Assembly: GCA_963965975.1 (NCBI GenBank)
Contig: OZ014412.1
Span: forward strand, 12,104,849 to 12,168,848
DNA length: 64,000 nucleotides
From: Xestospongia bergquistia
Taxonomy: Eukaryota; Porifera; Demospongiae; Haplosclerida; Petrosiidae
Reading direction: 5' to 3'
Shown here one piece after another: positions 7,625 through 45,793 of this stretch; the stretch's first letter is position 1; every line of letters starts with the position of its first letter. A program made the translations under genes and the position numbers. A model generated the notes under the pieces. That model did not search any database. It was not told where the DNA came from and saw nothing but the letters and a program-made list of their open reading frames with translations.

Positions 7625-10600
7625 TTACACATCAGTTTCCAATCCATTTTCAACTTCACAAATAAATGGCATTGCCTTATCCAAATCATTATGTTCCTCT
7701 CCAGTGTTGTCATCATTTTCTGATTTGATACTTGTCTTTGTTTCATAATCATTTGAAAAGTTGTTGGTTTCTTCTACTATGGGATAAATAGGTAGGCTCA
7801 GTGTCTGTGATGTCCAGCTTAATTCAGAAAGCTTTTTGTGAAGAAACCCTTTCTCTTTATAATCAAGGGGTGAGATTGGTGGCTCAATGCTGTGATTGGA
7901 GTCATGAGGAGACATTATATCTGGAAAGGCAAAATGTTGATTATTGTGTAATGATAATGGTGGAGCACTAATTGGTAGGGTAACAGTTGAGACTGATGTC
8001 TTATTAAGAGGGTCAAGAACAGAGTCTTCCATGAAAGATGTCACAAACGATGGCCTCCTATGTTCAGGTCTCTTTTTTGCTTCTAATGGTGACTTTGGAA
8101 TTGATGAGACACTAGTAGTAGATGATAGGACACCAGTATCTAATTCAGGACTGGTTGAAAGTATATACTTGTTACCCTGTAATGCAACAATATCTAATTC
8201 TTTAGGTGACAATTGTAAATATGAGGTATTATCAAGTGATGCCTCTTGTTCTATTTTCTTCCATTGCCTAATACGCTGTTCTATAATCTGTGAACTTAGA
8301 TTCCCACTTCTTTGAATTCTTCTTCTAGGTTTGGTGAGCATGGAGGTGTCATCACCTGGGGATATAATGCCATGATAACTATTGACACGCTGTAACAAAG
8401 TCCTCCGCCGAACTTCAATATTATCATTTAAACTCAAGATTGACAATCTTTTACCAGGTCTCCAAACATCATGCTCTTTTCCCTCATGTAACATCAACGA
8501 GGAGCTACGATTGCCTATCCTTTTCTGAAAGGCTGGAATGTTGATGTCTAGTTCAGAGTATTCTTTGAAGACACTGTCATCTTGGGATAATGTTGCATTT
8601 GTTTCTGACTGCTTTTCATCACAATACACTGAAGAGGATAAGTCATCATCAAAAGATCTTTTTTTCTCAGTAGGCATTTTTATATCATGGTATCCAATAT
8701 TTTTGTCTTTCCTAAATTTATTGAAAAAATTGGTTTCATTTTTGGCATGATGCTTTAGTCTAATTTGTTAGTCTTTAAAGTAAATAATTAACTATTATAT
8801 ACTCACTTATGTTGCTTAATGAGGCTTTTGAAGAAAGATGTAGCTCTAGGAACAAAGAGAGAGTGTCGGAGCAAAAGGGCAACCCAAGAGAGAAGTACCA
8901 ATGATACTGTCATTATCTGAAGCAACTTTAAGGAAAAACATAATAAACTATTCTTCAAAAGTAAACACATAATGTATACTAGCTCTGTACAGGAGTTCAT
9001 GAACATGTGCCACTTTGTATACTATTGAGCTCCTGATATACATAATATTAGACAATAAACTTACCAAAATATTTAGCGTAGGATTAATATTGTGTAGACT
9101 AAAATAGCTTAGCAGGTACTCTCCTGTGGAAGGGTAACACTCAAGAGAAGACTGATATTCGCACTTTGGTGAGATGTCTTGAAGAATCACACGGATCATT
9201 GCAGAAAACCCATAATAATTAGGATTAATGTAGAACAGCCATGCATACCTATAATAAAAGATAAGGAAAATAATTCATGTCTCTATATTGATTCAAATCA
9301 AATAAACTGCCATTGATTTCTACCTGAATGACAATGTAAAGATGGACAAGTATTAGTCCTAAAATACATTGTCTTTATTGTATATACATAATTATATAAT
9401 TACATAATAAACACTAACCATTTTGGCATGAGACTAGGTGGAACAAAGAAACCACCTGAAAAGCCAGCTATGGCTGATAAAACAGGTGAAATTCGATGAG
9501 CATAAGTTGGCACAGCAGTAATAACAAACATCAACAAACCAATCCAAGTATGATTAAGTGCCAAGTTAAAAATAACTGTCTCTACATATGCTATTAAATT
9601 ATATTGGGAATATGGAATTATCTAAAAATGAAGTAATCATTTCATATAACTAATACATAGTAATAAGTACTAACTAGTAAATAGGCTATTGTGGCTCCAG
9701 TTGTAACTGGTATAGCTGCTAAACTGACAAATCGAATGAAAGTCTGTAAAACTAACTCGTGTGCTTGACCAATTCCATCTGAATATTCCAATGAAAAAAT
9801 CTATAGATTGAATAGGCATTTGTTATTATAGCTATATATAATTGTAGGTATACCAATAGATCTCAACATATTATATGCATCAGCATCACAACTACTACTT
9901 ACATTCATTGCTTGAAGAAGATAGTTGTAAATGGCTGGAAACATAAATAGTCCACTAGCACAAATGAATACACCAAAACCAGTTAAAATAGATGTAGCAT
10001 TTTGTGTTTGTAAATAAACTGTCCCTATATAATTATACAGATTTCGTAACCTTATTAAGTACATAGACTTTCTAATTATTACATACCTAAAAGTAATCCA
10101 TATATAGCAAAAATACTCGGCAAGTAAAAAGTCTGTCCAATTTGAGCCCTCTTCTTTGCCCTTCCCTCAAGAGCTGCTATGTGGTTAAATAGGCCAGCTC
10201 TCTTAGATCTGAATCCCATTGCAAAGAAAGCCAAGTAGTTGAGATGCATATTTCTATTAAACTCAATAACTCACTTCTTTTTTTGTTCATGCATTTCTGA
10301 GAAACTAACATGAGCTGCTTTTACAGCATTTTTCACCTTTTGACTCTCTTGAGTTTCAGTAAAATGTTTAAGAATAGCTAAACGTGATTGTTCACTTCCT
10401 AACATATCCATAATTACATCTAAACAGGAGTAAATTCTAATTAAAGAATGGAATGAACCAATTGATGGATAGATTGATGGATGGATAAATTGGATGAAAA
10501 TATGACTTCTTTTGTGTCAGTATTGAATGACCACAACTACTTTACCAGCTGGGTTTGTAGAGTCTTGGATTTTTTTAATGGCAAGGTTAGCATTCAAATG

Positions 10601-13600
10601 AGCATTAACAAAAAACTGATAGGCATTTTCAGGGACACCATGATAAGCAATCTATAACAATATTATATCAATGTTGTTAATTTAGGATTATAAAATACCT
10701 GTCCTTGACAAAGAAGAAGAATTTGGCTGAACATATGAAATATTTCCAATCTTGGCTGATGAATGGTTAAAATTACTGTTCTGTTTGATGCTGCAATGTG
10801 GTTTAAATGATGTAATAATTCAAGAGAGGAAGCTGCATCTAGACCTTATATATCCAAAATGTAATGTCATAGTTGAACATAATTATTATGTACCTGAAGT
10901 TGGTTCATCTAAGAATATTAAACTTGGCATATTGAGCAGTTGTAGAGCAACACATAATCTCCTTTTTTGACCTCCACTGAGACCAGGTCCAACATTTGAT
11001 CCAACAGGTGTGTCTGCAAGCACAGTCAATCCAGTCTGAGTAATAATAAAAATTACAACAATATTTGTGTTCCCTGGCTCATCTATTCAATCATGCTACA
11101 ATGAACTTTAGTCAAACCTCTTTAAGAATTTGTTCAACTCTCTCTAGTTTTTCTTTCATTGAAAAATGTTTTGGAAGTCTCATTTGTGCTGCAAATGTTA
11201 AATTTTCTCTAACAGTAAGAGTTGAGTAGTAAGGTGTTGCCAACTGCAAGACGTATCCAGTGTTTGCAATATACCATCCTCTGACTTTCTCTAAGGAAGT
11301 CCCATTCACAAAAATATCTCCCTGATATGATCCAATATCATGACGTCCAGCCAGCAAGTCAAGAAATGTTGTTTTCCCACATCCTATACAAAGGAAGTTT
11401 ACATTTTAGGTTGACTACCTTTTCCTAATTACCAGATGGACCAAGAATTGCTACTAATTCTCCAGGGTTAAAATAAGCAGAAACCCCTCTAATAATTTCT
11501 TTTTCTTTTTTCTTTTTGTTACCAATAAATGGAACATTGGCTACATGCAATCTCTTATTTTGTAGTCGTTTTCTATGCTGGTACTGTTGCTGGAATTGCT
11601 GTATTGTTTGAATCATATCTGAAACAATAATGAAAGAATAATAATCATGCATTATTTCTCACAGACCTCCACTAGAAGTACTAGCTGTTACAGATTGCCC
11701 AGTTTCAACATCCATTGTGCTCCTCTTCATCATTCTCTGCCTACCAGGTAATTGCAATGTATCATCTTCATCAGTATTACCAGCTGAGATAGATAAGAGT
11801 CTCTTATACATTTGCCCACCATCAGGACTATTGGCAGCTTTCTTTAATGCTGATTTAGTTAATGTCACTGAATATCTGAAACAACATAACTTTCATTAAT
11901 AGGATGATAGAGCCTGAGATCTATAGCATTTATTAATAAATGATTTTAATGGTATTTAAACCATTATGGTGGCTAATATTATAATATAGATATATATGGC
12001 TATAACAAAATACTTAATTGAAATCAACATGTCTCAGAATTTAATACATTGTGGCATTTAACACAATTTGTTCATTAATAAATACCTCAGATTTAGACAG
12101 GCAACAGAAATGGCATTTTTCTCATCACAATATGGGAACTGTAAATAAGTGAGAAAAGAAGAATCTAAACTGACAGTAACAACTATTAGTTAATTAACAA
12201 ATTCTTCAATTTAATATAATGTATTCCACTATTGTTTAGTGTTATTTCTTACATTAGATTTCATTCCTTTATAAGGATCAGTCTCAGCGTATTCAATAAT
12301 TATTTTCTGTCTTTTTTTCAGCAATTTATAGTGGAATAGTAAAACAATCTTTATAATCACAGACACAATAGTTAGAAATATTACCAGCATTGCTGGTAAT
12401 ATTTGTGCTGAAAAAGGCCATAAAACTCCTAATTCTCCAAGTACTATTTCTTCAGGACACTGAGAATTACATCTTGGTCCAGAGCAATTGTCAGAGTACA
12501 TTATTACATCGCCATTGTATCGAACATGTAACCATTCCTCAATTGCTTGTGCTATAGTTATAGTATTTCTATGAGATGAGTTAGAAATGTCAGGAAGTAG
12601 AAGACCAAAGGATGTCCAGATATCACTGTGTACTTTGTGTCTATAGAAGAAGGAATGTCATATAAAGTCAAATTAATGAATAATGAAAATATAATATGAC
12701 TCACGTAAATTCATTGTTTTCATATGCCACATCAATTTGTTCATCTCCTAATATGGATGAAGGATTCCCCCACAAATCACTAGTTGCAAAATAAACATGT
12801 TGAAAACAAGAAGTGACAAAATAACTCAAATTTGAATTATGCCACACAGCATCTTGAAGACTTGTATTCATGGAACCACTATACTCAGAGACTATACGCA
12901 TTATTTCAATGACCCCAGTATTCACTGTAACATCAAGCAGTGATTGACTAAGTATATATAAGTCATATTGACTAAATATTGCTAGAGTAGGAATATTAGG
13001 ATAAATGGAATTGTTAGCCAGAATAAGAGGTGCTGATATGCACACAGAAGGATTTTTAATGTTATGACAGACACTATCATCCAAACTCAGTTGGACATCA
13101 TTATTGGAGAACTGTTTGTTAATTGTATTTTGAAAGTCAACGAACCATGCAGAGTCAGTTATGACAGACAAACGAGCATCTGTTGCTCTTGAATTCAATG
13201 TGTCAAGTGTCCATTGAGCATGATTTAATGAACCTACTCCTCCAGCACTAGTACCACCCAAAATGACATCACTTGCTTTGCTTAGATTGTGAAACTCAAA
13301 CAAATCTAGGATAACACTTTGATAAATAGCTGCACCACGAAATGTAAATTGATTGGCTGTTGCTTGAGGGTCAAAACTGAAATGAAAGTCAGTATTCAGT
13401 GCAAATTTGTAATTGTTGGTAGCACGTAGCCATAAATCACTGCTACAATAGGGTATTAGAACATGATTGTAATTATAAAACACTGGATTAGACACTTGAT
13501 TTTTTGATAACAAATCTCTGCCCTCTATTATCCATGCATTTCCACCTTTTGGTATATTAGCAAAACGCCAAAGAGAAGTCATAAGTCGAGAAGATGCAGT

Positions 13601-13927
13601 GAGTGGATCATTCATGTAGGTGTTCCAGGCTTCAATAACATTAACAAATATAGTTCCATTTTCTTTGAATGTGAATTTCCTTCGAATTCGTTGATCAATA
13701 TATCTTTCATTACATTTTCTTGGATTGTTACAACCACCACCACCTTCTAAGAAAATCACCCAATTTGAGCTGCCAGGAGTTTTATGAATGAAGTAGCCAG
13801 CCGGAGTAAAATCATTGCAAAGAGCTCCTCGATCAAAAGGTCTTGTAATATTATACCATTGCAGACAATTCGCAAAAGAGAATAAAAATGCTGTCAGAAG
13901 ATGAATGGCATAAAAAGTCAACATCAT
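7625..13927 (-). CDS. NOTUM/pectinacetylesterase-ABCG transporter fusion, 1627 aa
   Basis: Seventeen exons, high to low: 13927-12705, 12640-12253, 12138-12086, 11875-11667, 11618-11433, 11383-11118, 11035-10894, 10853-10699, 10651-10546, 10419-10275, 10208-10087, 10024-9903, 9800-9675, 9621-9419, 9248-9065, 8925-8807, 8759-7625; total 4884 nt, divisible by three. Residues 1-21 look like a signal peptide. Residues 22 to about 470 are a PAE/NOTUM-type serine hydrolase with oxyanion segment [10 protein letters not shown] (59-68), nucleophile GGTSAGG (Ser227), probable acid Asp322 (SQYDLY) and base His377 (SCFQHVYF). A membrane helix lies near 486-511. The ABCG half follows: [12 protein letters not shown], Walker A GPSGCGKT (684-691), LSGGQ (794-798), Walker [11 protein letters not shown], then about six TM segments. 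From about 1250 a Ser-rich cytosolic tail runs to 1627. Cargo unknown. The one doubt is whether a shorter hydrolase-only isoform also exists. Confidence 0.85.
12139..12252 (-). other. Fusion-joining intron (114 bp)
   Basis: The hydrolase/TM exon ends GGAATGAAATCTAAT before GTAAGA. The next exon starts TTCCCATATTGTG after TTTACAG, and the phase is 0 on both sides. If the intron is retained, the chain adds VRNNTKQ and stops, giving a membrane-anchored hydrolase without the transporter. I see no in-frame ATG before the next exon that would start an independent ABCG protein. Confidence 0.75.
12705..13927 (-). other. Exon 1 of the fusion: hydrolase catalytic domain
   Basis: A single 1223-nt exon carries the signal peptide and almost all of the serine hydrolase, including Ser227, Asp322 and His377. 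The ABCG half is split among many small exons instead. This contrast in exon structure fits joining of two genes. Known NOTUM removes palmitoleate from Wnt and plant PAEs deacetylate pectin; which activity this domain has cannot be read from sequence. Several N-x-S/T sites and paired Cys residues fit an extracellular domain. Confidence 0.85.

Positions 13928-20731: not shown

Positions 20732-45793
<25,062 letters not shown>

What the first reader, a model, noticed from the sequence alone, without database searches (positions are those of the whole stretch)
7625..13927. Secreted hydrolase fused to an ABCG half-transporter
Seen: 17 exons with matching phase at every junction encode signal peptide, NOTUM/PAE-type hydrolase with Ser227, Asp322, His377, a membrane helix near 486-511, then an ABCG nucleotide-binding domain and about six TM segments. 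Known: ABCG half-transporters have a cytosolic N-terminal ATPase followed by the membrane domain; NOTUM/PAE enzymes are normally stand-alone and secreted. The topology is coherent: enzyme outside, ATPase inside. Inference: the enzyme may process a lipidated or acylated molecule that the transporter exports or flips, loosely like the protease-ABC Tag proteins of Dictyostelium. I do not know whether this architecture has been described.
Basis: partly seen in the sequence, partly recalled or inferred. Interest (0 to 1): 0.9.

Follow-up and report, generated by a model that had tools for sequence, protein, structure and literature searches.

The report
Esterase fused to an ABCG transporter
A sponge gene encodes one membrane protein that joins an outward-facing, Notum-like esterase to a half ABC transporter; the same fused protein occurs in other sponges, corals, a hydrozoan and a comb jelly, so it looks like an old animal protein for which we found no description.

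The parts
7625..13927 (-). whole coding region, 17 exons, 1608-residue PAE-TM0-ABCG fusion
12705..13927 (-). exon 1: signal-like segment (residues 1-19) and most of the PAE/NOTUM-type esterase
13247..13249 (-). codon of Ser227, nucleophile in GTSAGG
   Evidence: Ser in 19 of 19 fusions and 5 of 5 NOTUMs given
12962..12964 (-). codon of Asp322
   Evidence: Asp in 19 of 19 and 5 of 5
12797..12799 (-). codon of His377 in CFQH
   Evidence: His in 19 of 19 and 5 of 5
12253..12640 (-). exon 2: end of esterase with Cys 460/465/469, then TM0
12334..12390 (-). TM0, membrane helix residues 492-510
   Evidence: long helix at the matching place in the model of homologue P0126 (463-506)
12139..12252 (-). 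intron 2 at the esterase/transporter junction, phase 0; acceptor at the same place in three paralogues
12086..12138 (-). exon 3: first strand of the nucleotide-binding domain ([16 protein letters not shown])
   Evidence: strand 534-545 in the P0126 model
11433..11875 (-). exons 4-5 (with the intron between): variable insert and start of the NBD core up to GPSG of Walker A
10546..11383 (-). exons 6-9 (with introns): rest of Walker [26 protein letters not shown]
8807..10419 (-). exons 10-16 (with introns): connecting part and ABC2 membrane domain
7625..8711 (-). exon 17: long C-terminal tail with the motif GKEHDVWRP, found in other fusions, mainly demosponge ones
   Evidence: motif in 8 of 20 tails, 0.02 expected by shuffling; the motif was chosen by eye from these sequences, so the contrast is after the fact

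Best explanation
This is a member of an apparently undescribed, old animal family of ABCG half-transporters that carry their own outward-facing NOTUM-type carboxylesterase. Two copies presumably pair, as other ABCG half-transporters do. The cytosolic ATPase drives export or flipping of an acylated lipid or lipid-modified molecule through the membrane domain, and the two tethered esterase domains above the exit remove its acyl group, releasing the product and making export irreversible. Shown by sequence: one reading frame, order of domains, intact catalytic and ATPase motifs, esterase outside (by glycosylation sites), occurrence in three animal phyla. Inferred: dimer, transport activity, esterase activity, and coupling of the two. 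The architecture is about 95% sure; the confidence below is for the coupled mechanism.
Against: No RNA, enzyme or transport data for any member. Coral paralogues P0015, P0016 and P0128 keep the triad in the esterase (P0016 and P0128; P0015 lies in the 34-row alignment where the triad is invariant) while NBD motifs have decayed, so the esterase can be kept without ATP-driven transport. The ctenophore protein P0243 ends part-way into the membrane domain and has no ABC2_membrane match, an incomplete model or a real truncation. Only 27 of the 90 dual-domain rows reach from the NBD to near the end of the membrane domain (one search counts 29; P0137 and P0151 owe this to spurious matches). Some annotated models hold the ABC half alone (P0231, P0232, P0236): split models or real separate products. 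dN/dS in the PAE zone of the tandem pair is 0.55, on few changes, and 0.63 in the linker (coding parts came from my own splice script). Hydropathy also flags segments inside the esterase zone of several members, e.g. L010 and L011. The substrate is unknown.
Confidence: 0.5

Rival explanations
1. The ABC half serves mainly to bring and hold the esterase at the cell surface (as reported for TagC in Dictyostelium); the enzyme acts on molecules made elsewhere and no coupled export takes place.
For: Coral paralogues with intact triad but decayed NBD motifs. [quoted passage not shown]
Against: All four genes here keep NBD motifs, and the NBD is the most constrained zone of the one pair measured (dN/dS 0.115); a single helix would be enough as a mere anchor.
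Confidence: 0.27
2. It is this animal's NOTUM: a membrane-tethered Wnt deacylase.
For: The own genome has three Wnt loci, and two exon-level searches found no stand-alone NOTUM-type gene, only the four fusions and a cluster of plant-type PAE genes. Closest solved folds are NOTUM.
Against: Oopsacas minuta has the fusion (P0003) although wnt, wntless and dishevelled were not found in two glass sponges (PMC5684314, abstract and passages; porcupine was found in O. minuta, so an acylating enzyme remains there). Protist-like rows have it too. The hydrozoan Clytia has the fusion (P0124) and separately described NotumA and NotumO (PMC4169000, passages), whose four primers give no full match in P0124, one sharing four residues by chance (primers may lie outside the coding part). 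In the rooted tree the fusions and bilaterian NOTUM are separate clades.
Confidence: 0.13
3. The protein is made as a fusion but cut or shed, so that esterase and transporter work apart.
For: A Cys cluster and a short stretch precede TM0, where shedding would be possible; inference only.
Against: The order is kept over three phyla, which separate products would not need.
Confidence: 0.07
4. Artefact: two adjacent genes joined by a false intron.
For: If intron 2 is not spliced, the frame ends shortly after TM0 (VRNNTKQ stop), so a short esterase isoform is possible. ABC-only gene models exist in corals and Clytia.
Against: Four genes in this genome with the same junction acceptor; database proteins with both halves, many apparently in one uninterrupted frame; contigs hardly longer than the frame, hence transcript-like (P0001: 1574 aa on 5377 bases; P0010: 2169 aa, longest contig 6805; P0006 named after an assembled transcript).
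Confidence: 0.03

Closest known systems
NOTUM, palmitoleoyl-protein carboxylesterase (Pfam PF03283)
   Different: NOTUM is stand-alone and secreted; here the enzyme is tethered to a transporter and forms its own clade beside the bilaterian NOTUMs given
ABCG half-transporters (ABCG1, ABCG2, ABCG5/8, plant ABCG16 and ABCG25)
   Different: Extra N-terminal helix and an esterase on the outer side, insert between the first strands of the NBD, long tail
Dictyostelium TagA/B/C protease-ABC proteins
   Same: General plan: a hydrolase and an ABC transporter in one chain
   Different: Protease domain and abcB family there (PMC3743828 passages); PAE and ABCG here
Other ABCG proteins with a helix before the NBD, mostly without organism names
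   Same: One hydrophobic segment before Walker A and no PAE match in 25 of the 119 rows of the transporter-half search; five rows have 16 or more Cys ahead of that segment (P0251, P0288, P0289, P0294, P0333)
   Different: No PAE match in the nine non-fusion rows given to Pfam (P0251, P0252, P0254, P0256, P0257, P0260, P0266, P0269, P0300)

Membership tests
PAE/NOTUM family PF03283 | Match above the curated cut-off | tested here: met
   133.8 bits, cut-off 26.6
PAE/NOTUM family PF03283 | Ser-Asp-His triad | tested here: met
   19 of 19 fusions and 5 of 5 NOTUMs given
NOTUM proper | NOTUM fold | tested here: met
NOTUM proper | Falls in the NOTUM clade | tested here: not met
   20 fusions one clade 99/97, 5 NOTUMs beside it (88/86), rooted with plant-type PAE of the same genome; long branches meet
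NOTUM proper | Soluble secreted enzyme | tested here: not met
   Same frame continues through TM0 into an ABCG transporter
NOTUM proper | Removes palmitoleate from Wnt | not testable with these tools
   No assay
ABCG half-transporter | ABC_tran followed by ABC2_membrane | tested here: met
ABCG half-transporter | Walker A, LSGGQ, Walker B, TIHQPR | tested here: met
   All four in the window's protein
ABCG half-transporter | ABCG fold | tested here: met
ABCG half-transporter | Works as a dimer | not testable with these tools
   No complex was modelled
Tag protease-ABC proteins | Serine protease domain | tested here: not met
   The enzyme part is PAE; no protease family among the six Pfam matches

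The most novel reading that the evidence does not exclude
A class of self-processing lipid exporters that arose before animals split (perhaps before animals), in which an ABCG pump hands each exported acylated molecule to its own NOTUM-type esterase; kept in comb jellies, sponges and cnidarians and lost or replaced in bilaterians.
Probability: 0.4. Interest if true: 0.9.

Novelty: new variant of a known kind. Interest (0 to 1): 0.78.

Why it matters
An enzyme of the NOTUM family welded to a lipid-type transporter appears in three early animal branches and in protist-like sequences, yet our literature searches found no description of it. It offers a route to an unknown acylated product of early animals, shows a NOTUM-type enzyme kept in a lineage reported to lack Wnt, and gives a ready test of whether export and deacylation are coupled in one molecule.

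Tried and rejected
Idea that NOTUM arose by splitting from the fusion: the rooted tree puts NOTUM beside the fusions, not inside (long branches, outgroup rows joined by eye). Idea of two separate origins (animals and protists): the transporter trees put the protist-like rows P0168/P0186 apart, but one clade is not rejected (p-AU 0.445), and the esterase trees hold all fusions together; left open. Idea that the outer part of P0251 is a phospholipase A2 (motif recalled from memory): Pfam and PDB searches gave nothing; dropped. A bacterial outgroup for the esterase: no relative found with NOTUM as query. That no bilaterian has the fusion was not tested fully: only the best 120 of 227, of 156 and of 6851 hits were listed; the named bilaterian rows seen there with PAE were PAE-only.

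Literature: ten searches (one search was about Tag proteins) showed no paper describing the fusion. They return titles and starts of abstracts, and two lists were cut (10 of 278; 15 of 125). The library holds open-licence PMC papers only. Papers opened: PMC6278862, PMC4649718, PMC3743828, PMC5684314, PMC4169000, PMC12221298, all by passages (PMC5684314 also the abstract).

Rows left out: the esterase tree used 33 of the 90 dual-domain proteins, the transporter tree 26 fusions with 20 chosen others, the rooted esterase tree 20, the NBD tree 19 with 20 others. The paralogue at 14.95 Mb was cut short and completed. The spliced alignment of eight further own-genome loci with this script gave mostly nonsense at their 5' ends and was replaced by a DNA comparison.

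Full report
What is there. The minus strand from 13927 to 7625 holds 17 exons with GT-AG introns of 47 to 210 bases, frame kept at each junction, giving 1608 residues. Pfam finds PAE, ABC_tran and ABC2_membrane in that order, each over its cut-off. Hydropathy shows a signal-like segment at 1-19, one strong helix at 492-510 between esterase and transporter, and five segments in the membrane domain. The window's protein keeps Walker A, LSGGQ, Walker B and the TIHQPR stretch typical of ABCG proteins (typical by recall).

Is it one gene. The same genome (146 Mb, 21 contigs) has three more loci where a NOTUM-type esterase exon is followed by the same helix and transporter exons, at C2 10.58, 10.59 and 14.95 Mb. 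Spliced alignment recovers the same kind of protein at each, with the exon after the junction starting at the same residue and phase (the 14.95 Mb copy completed). A full-length protein search gave 16 proteins at the top of the list with esterase and transporter domains; a profile search added more, among them Clytia, Geodia and Montipora; a search with the transporter half alone brought up Bolinopsis, a comb jelly (PAE 126.9 bits and ABC_tran 84.1, no ABC2_membrane match; it ends part-way into the membrane domain). Screened with two profiles built from nine of the fusions, 90 of 353 proteins on hand (86 from databases, 4 own) match both. In 48 of these 90 the chain runs from the esterase through the helix to Walker A and stops soon after, many ending in a few unrelated residues as at an intron read through. 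I read these, bar the annotated coral model P0132, as intron-blind predictions on genomic contigs, so that the junction lies in one uninterrupted frame there; that reading is inference. Of the 90, 27 reach from the NBD to near the end of the membrane domain (after setting aside two spurious rows). Three full-length rows of 1572-1574 aa come from ENA contigs of 28 to 430 kb (P0002, P0005, P0121), and P0001 and P0010 from contigs hardly longer than their frames. A false joining of neighbours cannot well explain all this.

Who has it. Named sources: Ephydatia muelleri and Geodia barretti (demosponges), Oopsacas minuta (glass sponge), Oculina, Porites, Stylophora and Montipora (corals), Clytia (hydrozoan), Bolinopsis (comb jelly). 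Rows named scpid/scgid are, by recall of that naming, the calcareous sponge Sycon. In the esterase tree 33 fusions, protist-like rows included, stand against 8 bilaterian NOTUMs, 100/100; rooted with plant-type PAE, 20 fusions are one clade, 99/97. In the transporter tree 24 fusions are one clade, 100/100, with the two protist-like rows outside it; in an NBD-only tree 17 are, 98/95. Both main trees recover the corals (98/92 and 100/99), the Clytia-P0010 pair, and the demosponge-glass sponge group (91/97 and 99/99). The window's gene stands apart from its three paralogues: in the transporter tree the latter group with Ephydatia, Geodia and glass sponge genes to its exclusion (99/96), so the duplication is old or the branch misplaced; the esterase tree (85/28) does not settle it. 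P0168, P0172 and P0186, without organism names and unlike the animal rows in make-up, look like protist fusions; one origin with the animal ones is neither shown nor rejected. No bilaterian fusion was among the listed hits, but the lists were cut at 120.

How it most likely works. ABCG half-transporters work as dimers and several move lipids; NOTUM removes acyl groups in the outer space (both established knowledge). Placing two such enzymes above the exit suggests a pump that exports or flips an acylated molecule and deacylates it there. Against tight coupling, three coral paralogues keep the triad while their NBD motifs have decayed, which favours, at least in them, the rival that the transporter part is now only a holder; TagC is a precedent for a transporter activity needed to present its enzyme (PMC3743828, passages). 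For coupling, all four genes here keep both halves, and in the one close pair that could be measured the NBD is the most constrained part (dN/dS 0.115, others 0.41 to 0.63).

Is Wnt the substrate. The own genome has three Wnt loci and no stand-alone NOTUM-type gene by two exon-level searches, only the four fusions and a cluster of plant-type PAE genes. That invites a Wnt reading. But Oopsacas has the fusion although wnt, wntless and dishevelled were not found in it (PMC5684314, abstract and passages read), protist-like rows have it, and Clytia has separately described NotumA and NotumO (PMC4169000, passages read) whose primers give no full match in the Clytia fusion. Porcupine was reported in O. 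minuta, so an acylating enzyme persists there without Wnt, which fits another acylated substrate but does not show one. So Wnt is at most one substrate in some animals.

Known or new. The esterase is a member of the PAE/NOTUM family but not of the bilaterian NOTUM clade; the transporter is a member of ABCG. Their union is annotated in databases as hypothetical protein, ABC transporter G family member or the like, and the literature searches found no description (two of these lists were cut). A survey of eukaryotic ABC structure (PMC4649718, passages) has no occurrence of 'sponge', 'Amphimedon', 'extra domain' or 'additional domain' in its main text. I rate it a new variant of a known kind: known parts in an apparently undescribed, old and widely kept union.

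Noticed in passing
P0172 residues 1246-1699 and about 1845-2025: A protist-like PAE-ABCG protein carries an intein-type insertion with homing endonuclease inside Walker A (Pfam Hom_end_hint and Hom_end) and a second insertion after LSGGQ with intein-like ends (by eye) that Pfam does not name.
   Followed up: partly
own genome C7:3.40-3.95 Mb (L001-L008, L013, L014): A cluster of stand-alone plant-type PAE genes (YCDGASF motif); no convincing ABC motif in the two stretches inspected.
   Followed up: partly
own genome C2 13.45-14.82 Mb and C3 (L015-L022): Eight dispersed partial copies of the 14.95 Mb fusion locus, mostly 90-97% identical, without the esterase exon in the stretches fetched and without a PAE hit there; perhaps spread by a mobile element or segmental duplication.
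   Followed up: partly
L010 and L011 (C2 10.58 and 10.59 Mb): The tandem pair has dS 0.04 in the esterase zone but 0.50 in the NBD, which suggests gene conversion limited to the esterase exon.
   Followed up: no
P0015, P0016, P0128 (corals): Fusion paralogues with an intact esterase triad but decayed LSGGQ and H-loop motifs, so perhaps esterases on a dead transporter.
   Followed up: partly
P0251, P0288, P0289, P0294, P0333: Other ABCG-like proteins with a Cys-rich part and one helix before the NBD, of unknown kind.
   Followed up: partly
window about 25741-45732, plus strand: The neighbouring gene encodes a dynein heavy chain (Pfam DHC_N2, AAA_8, Dynein_C); ordinary.
   Followed up: no
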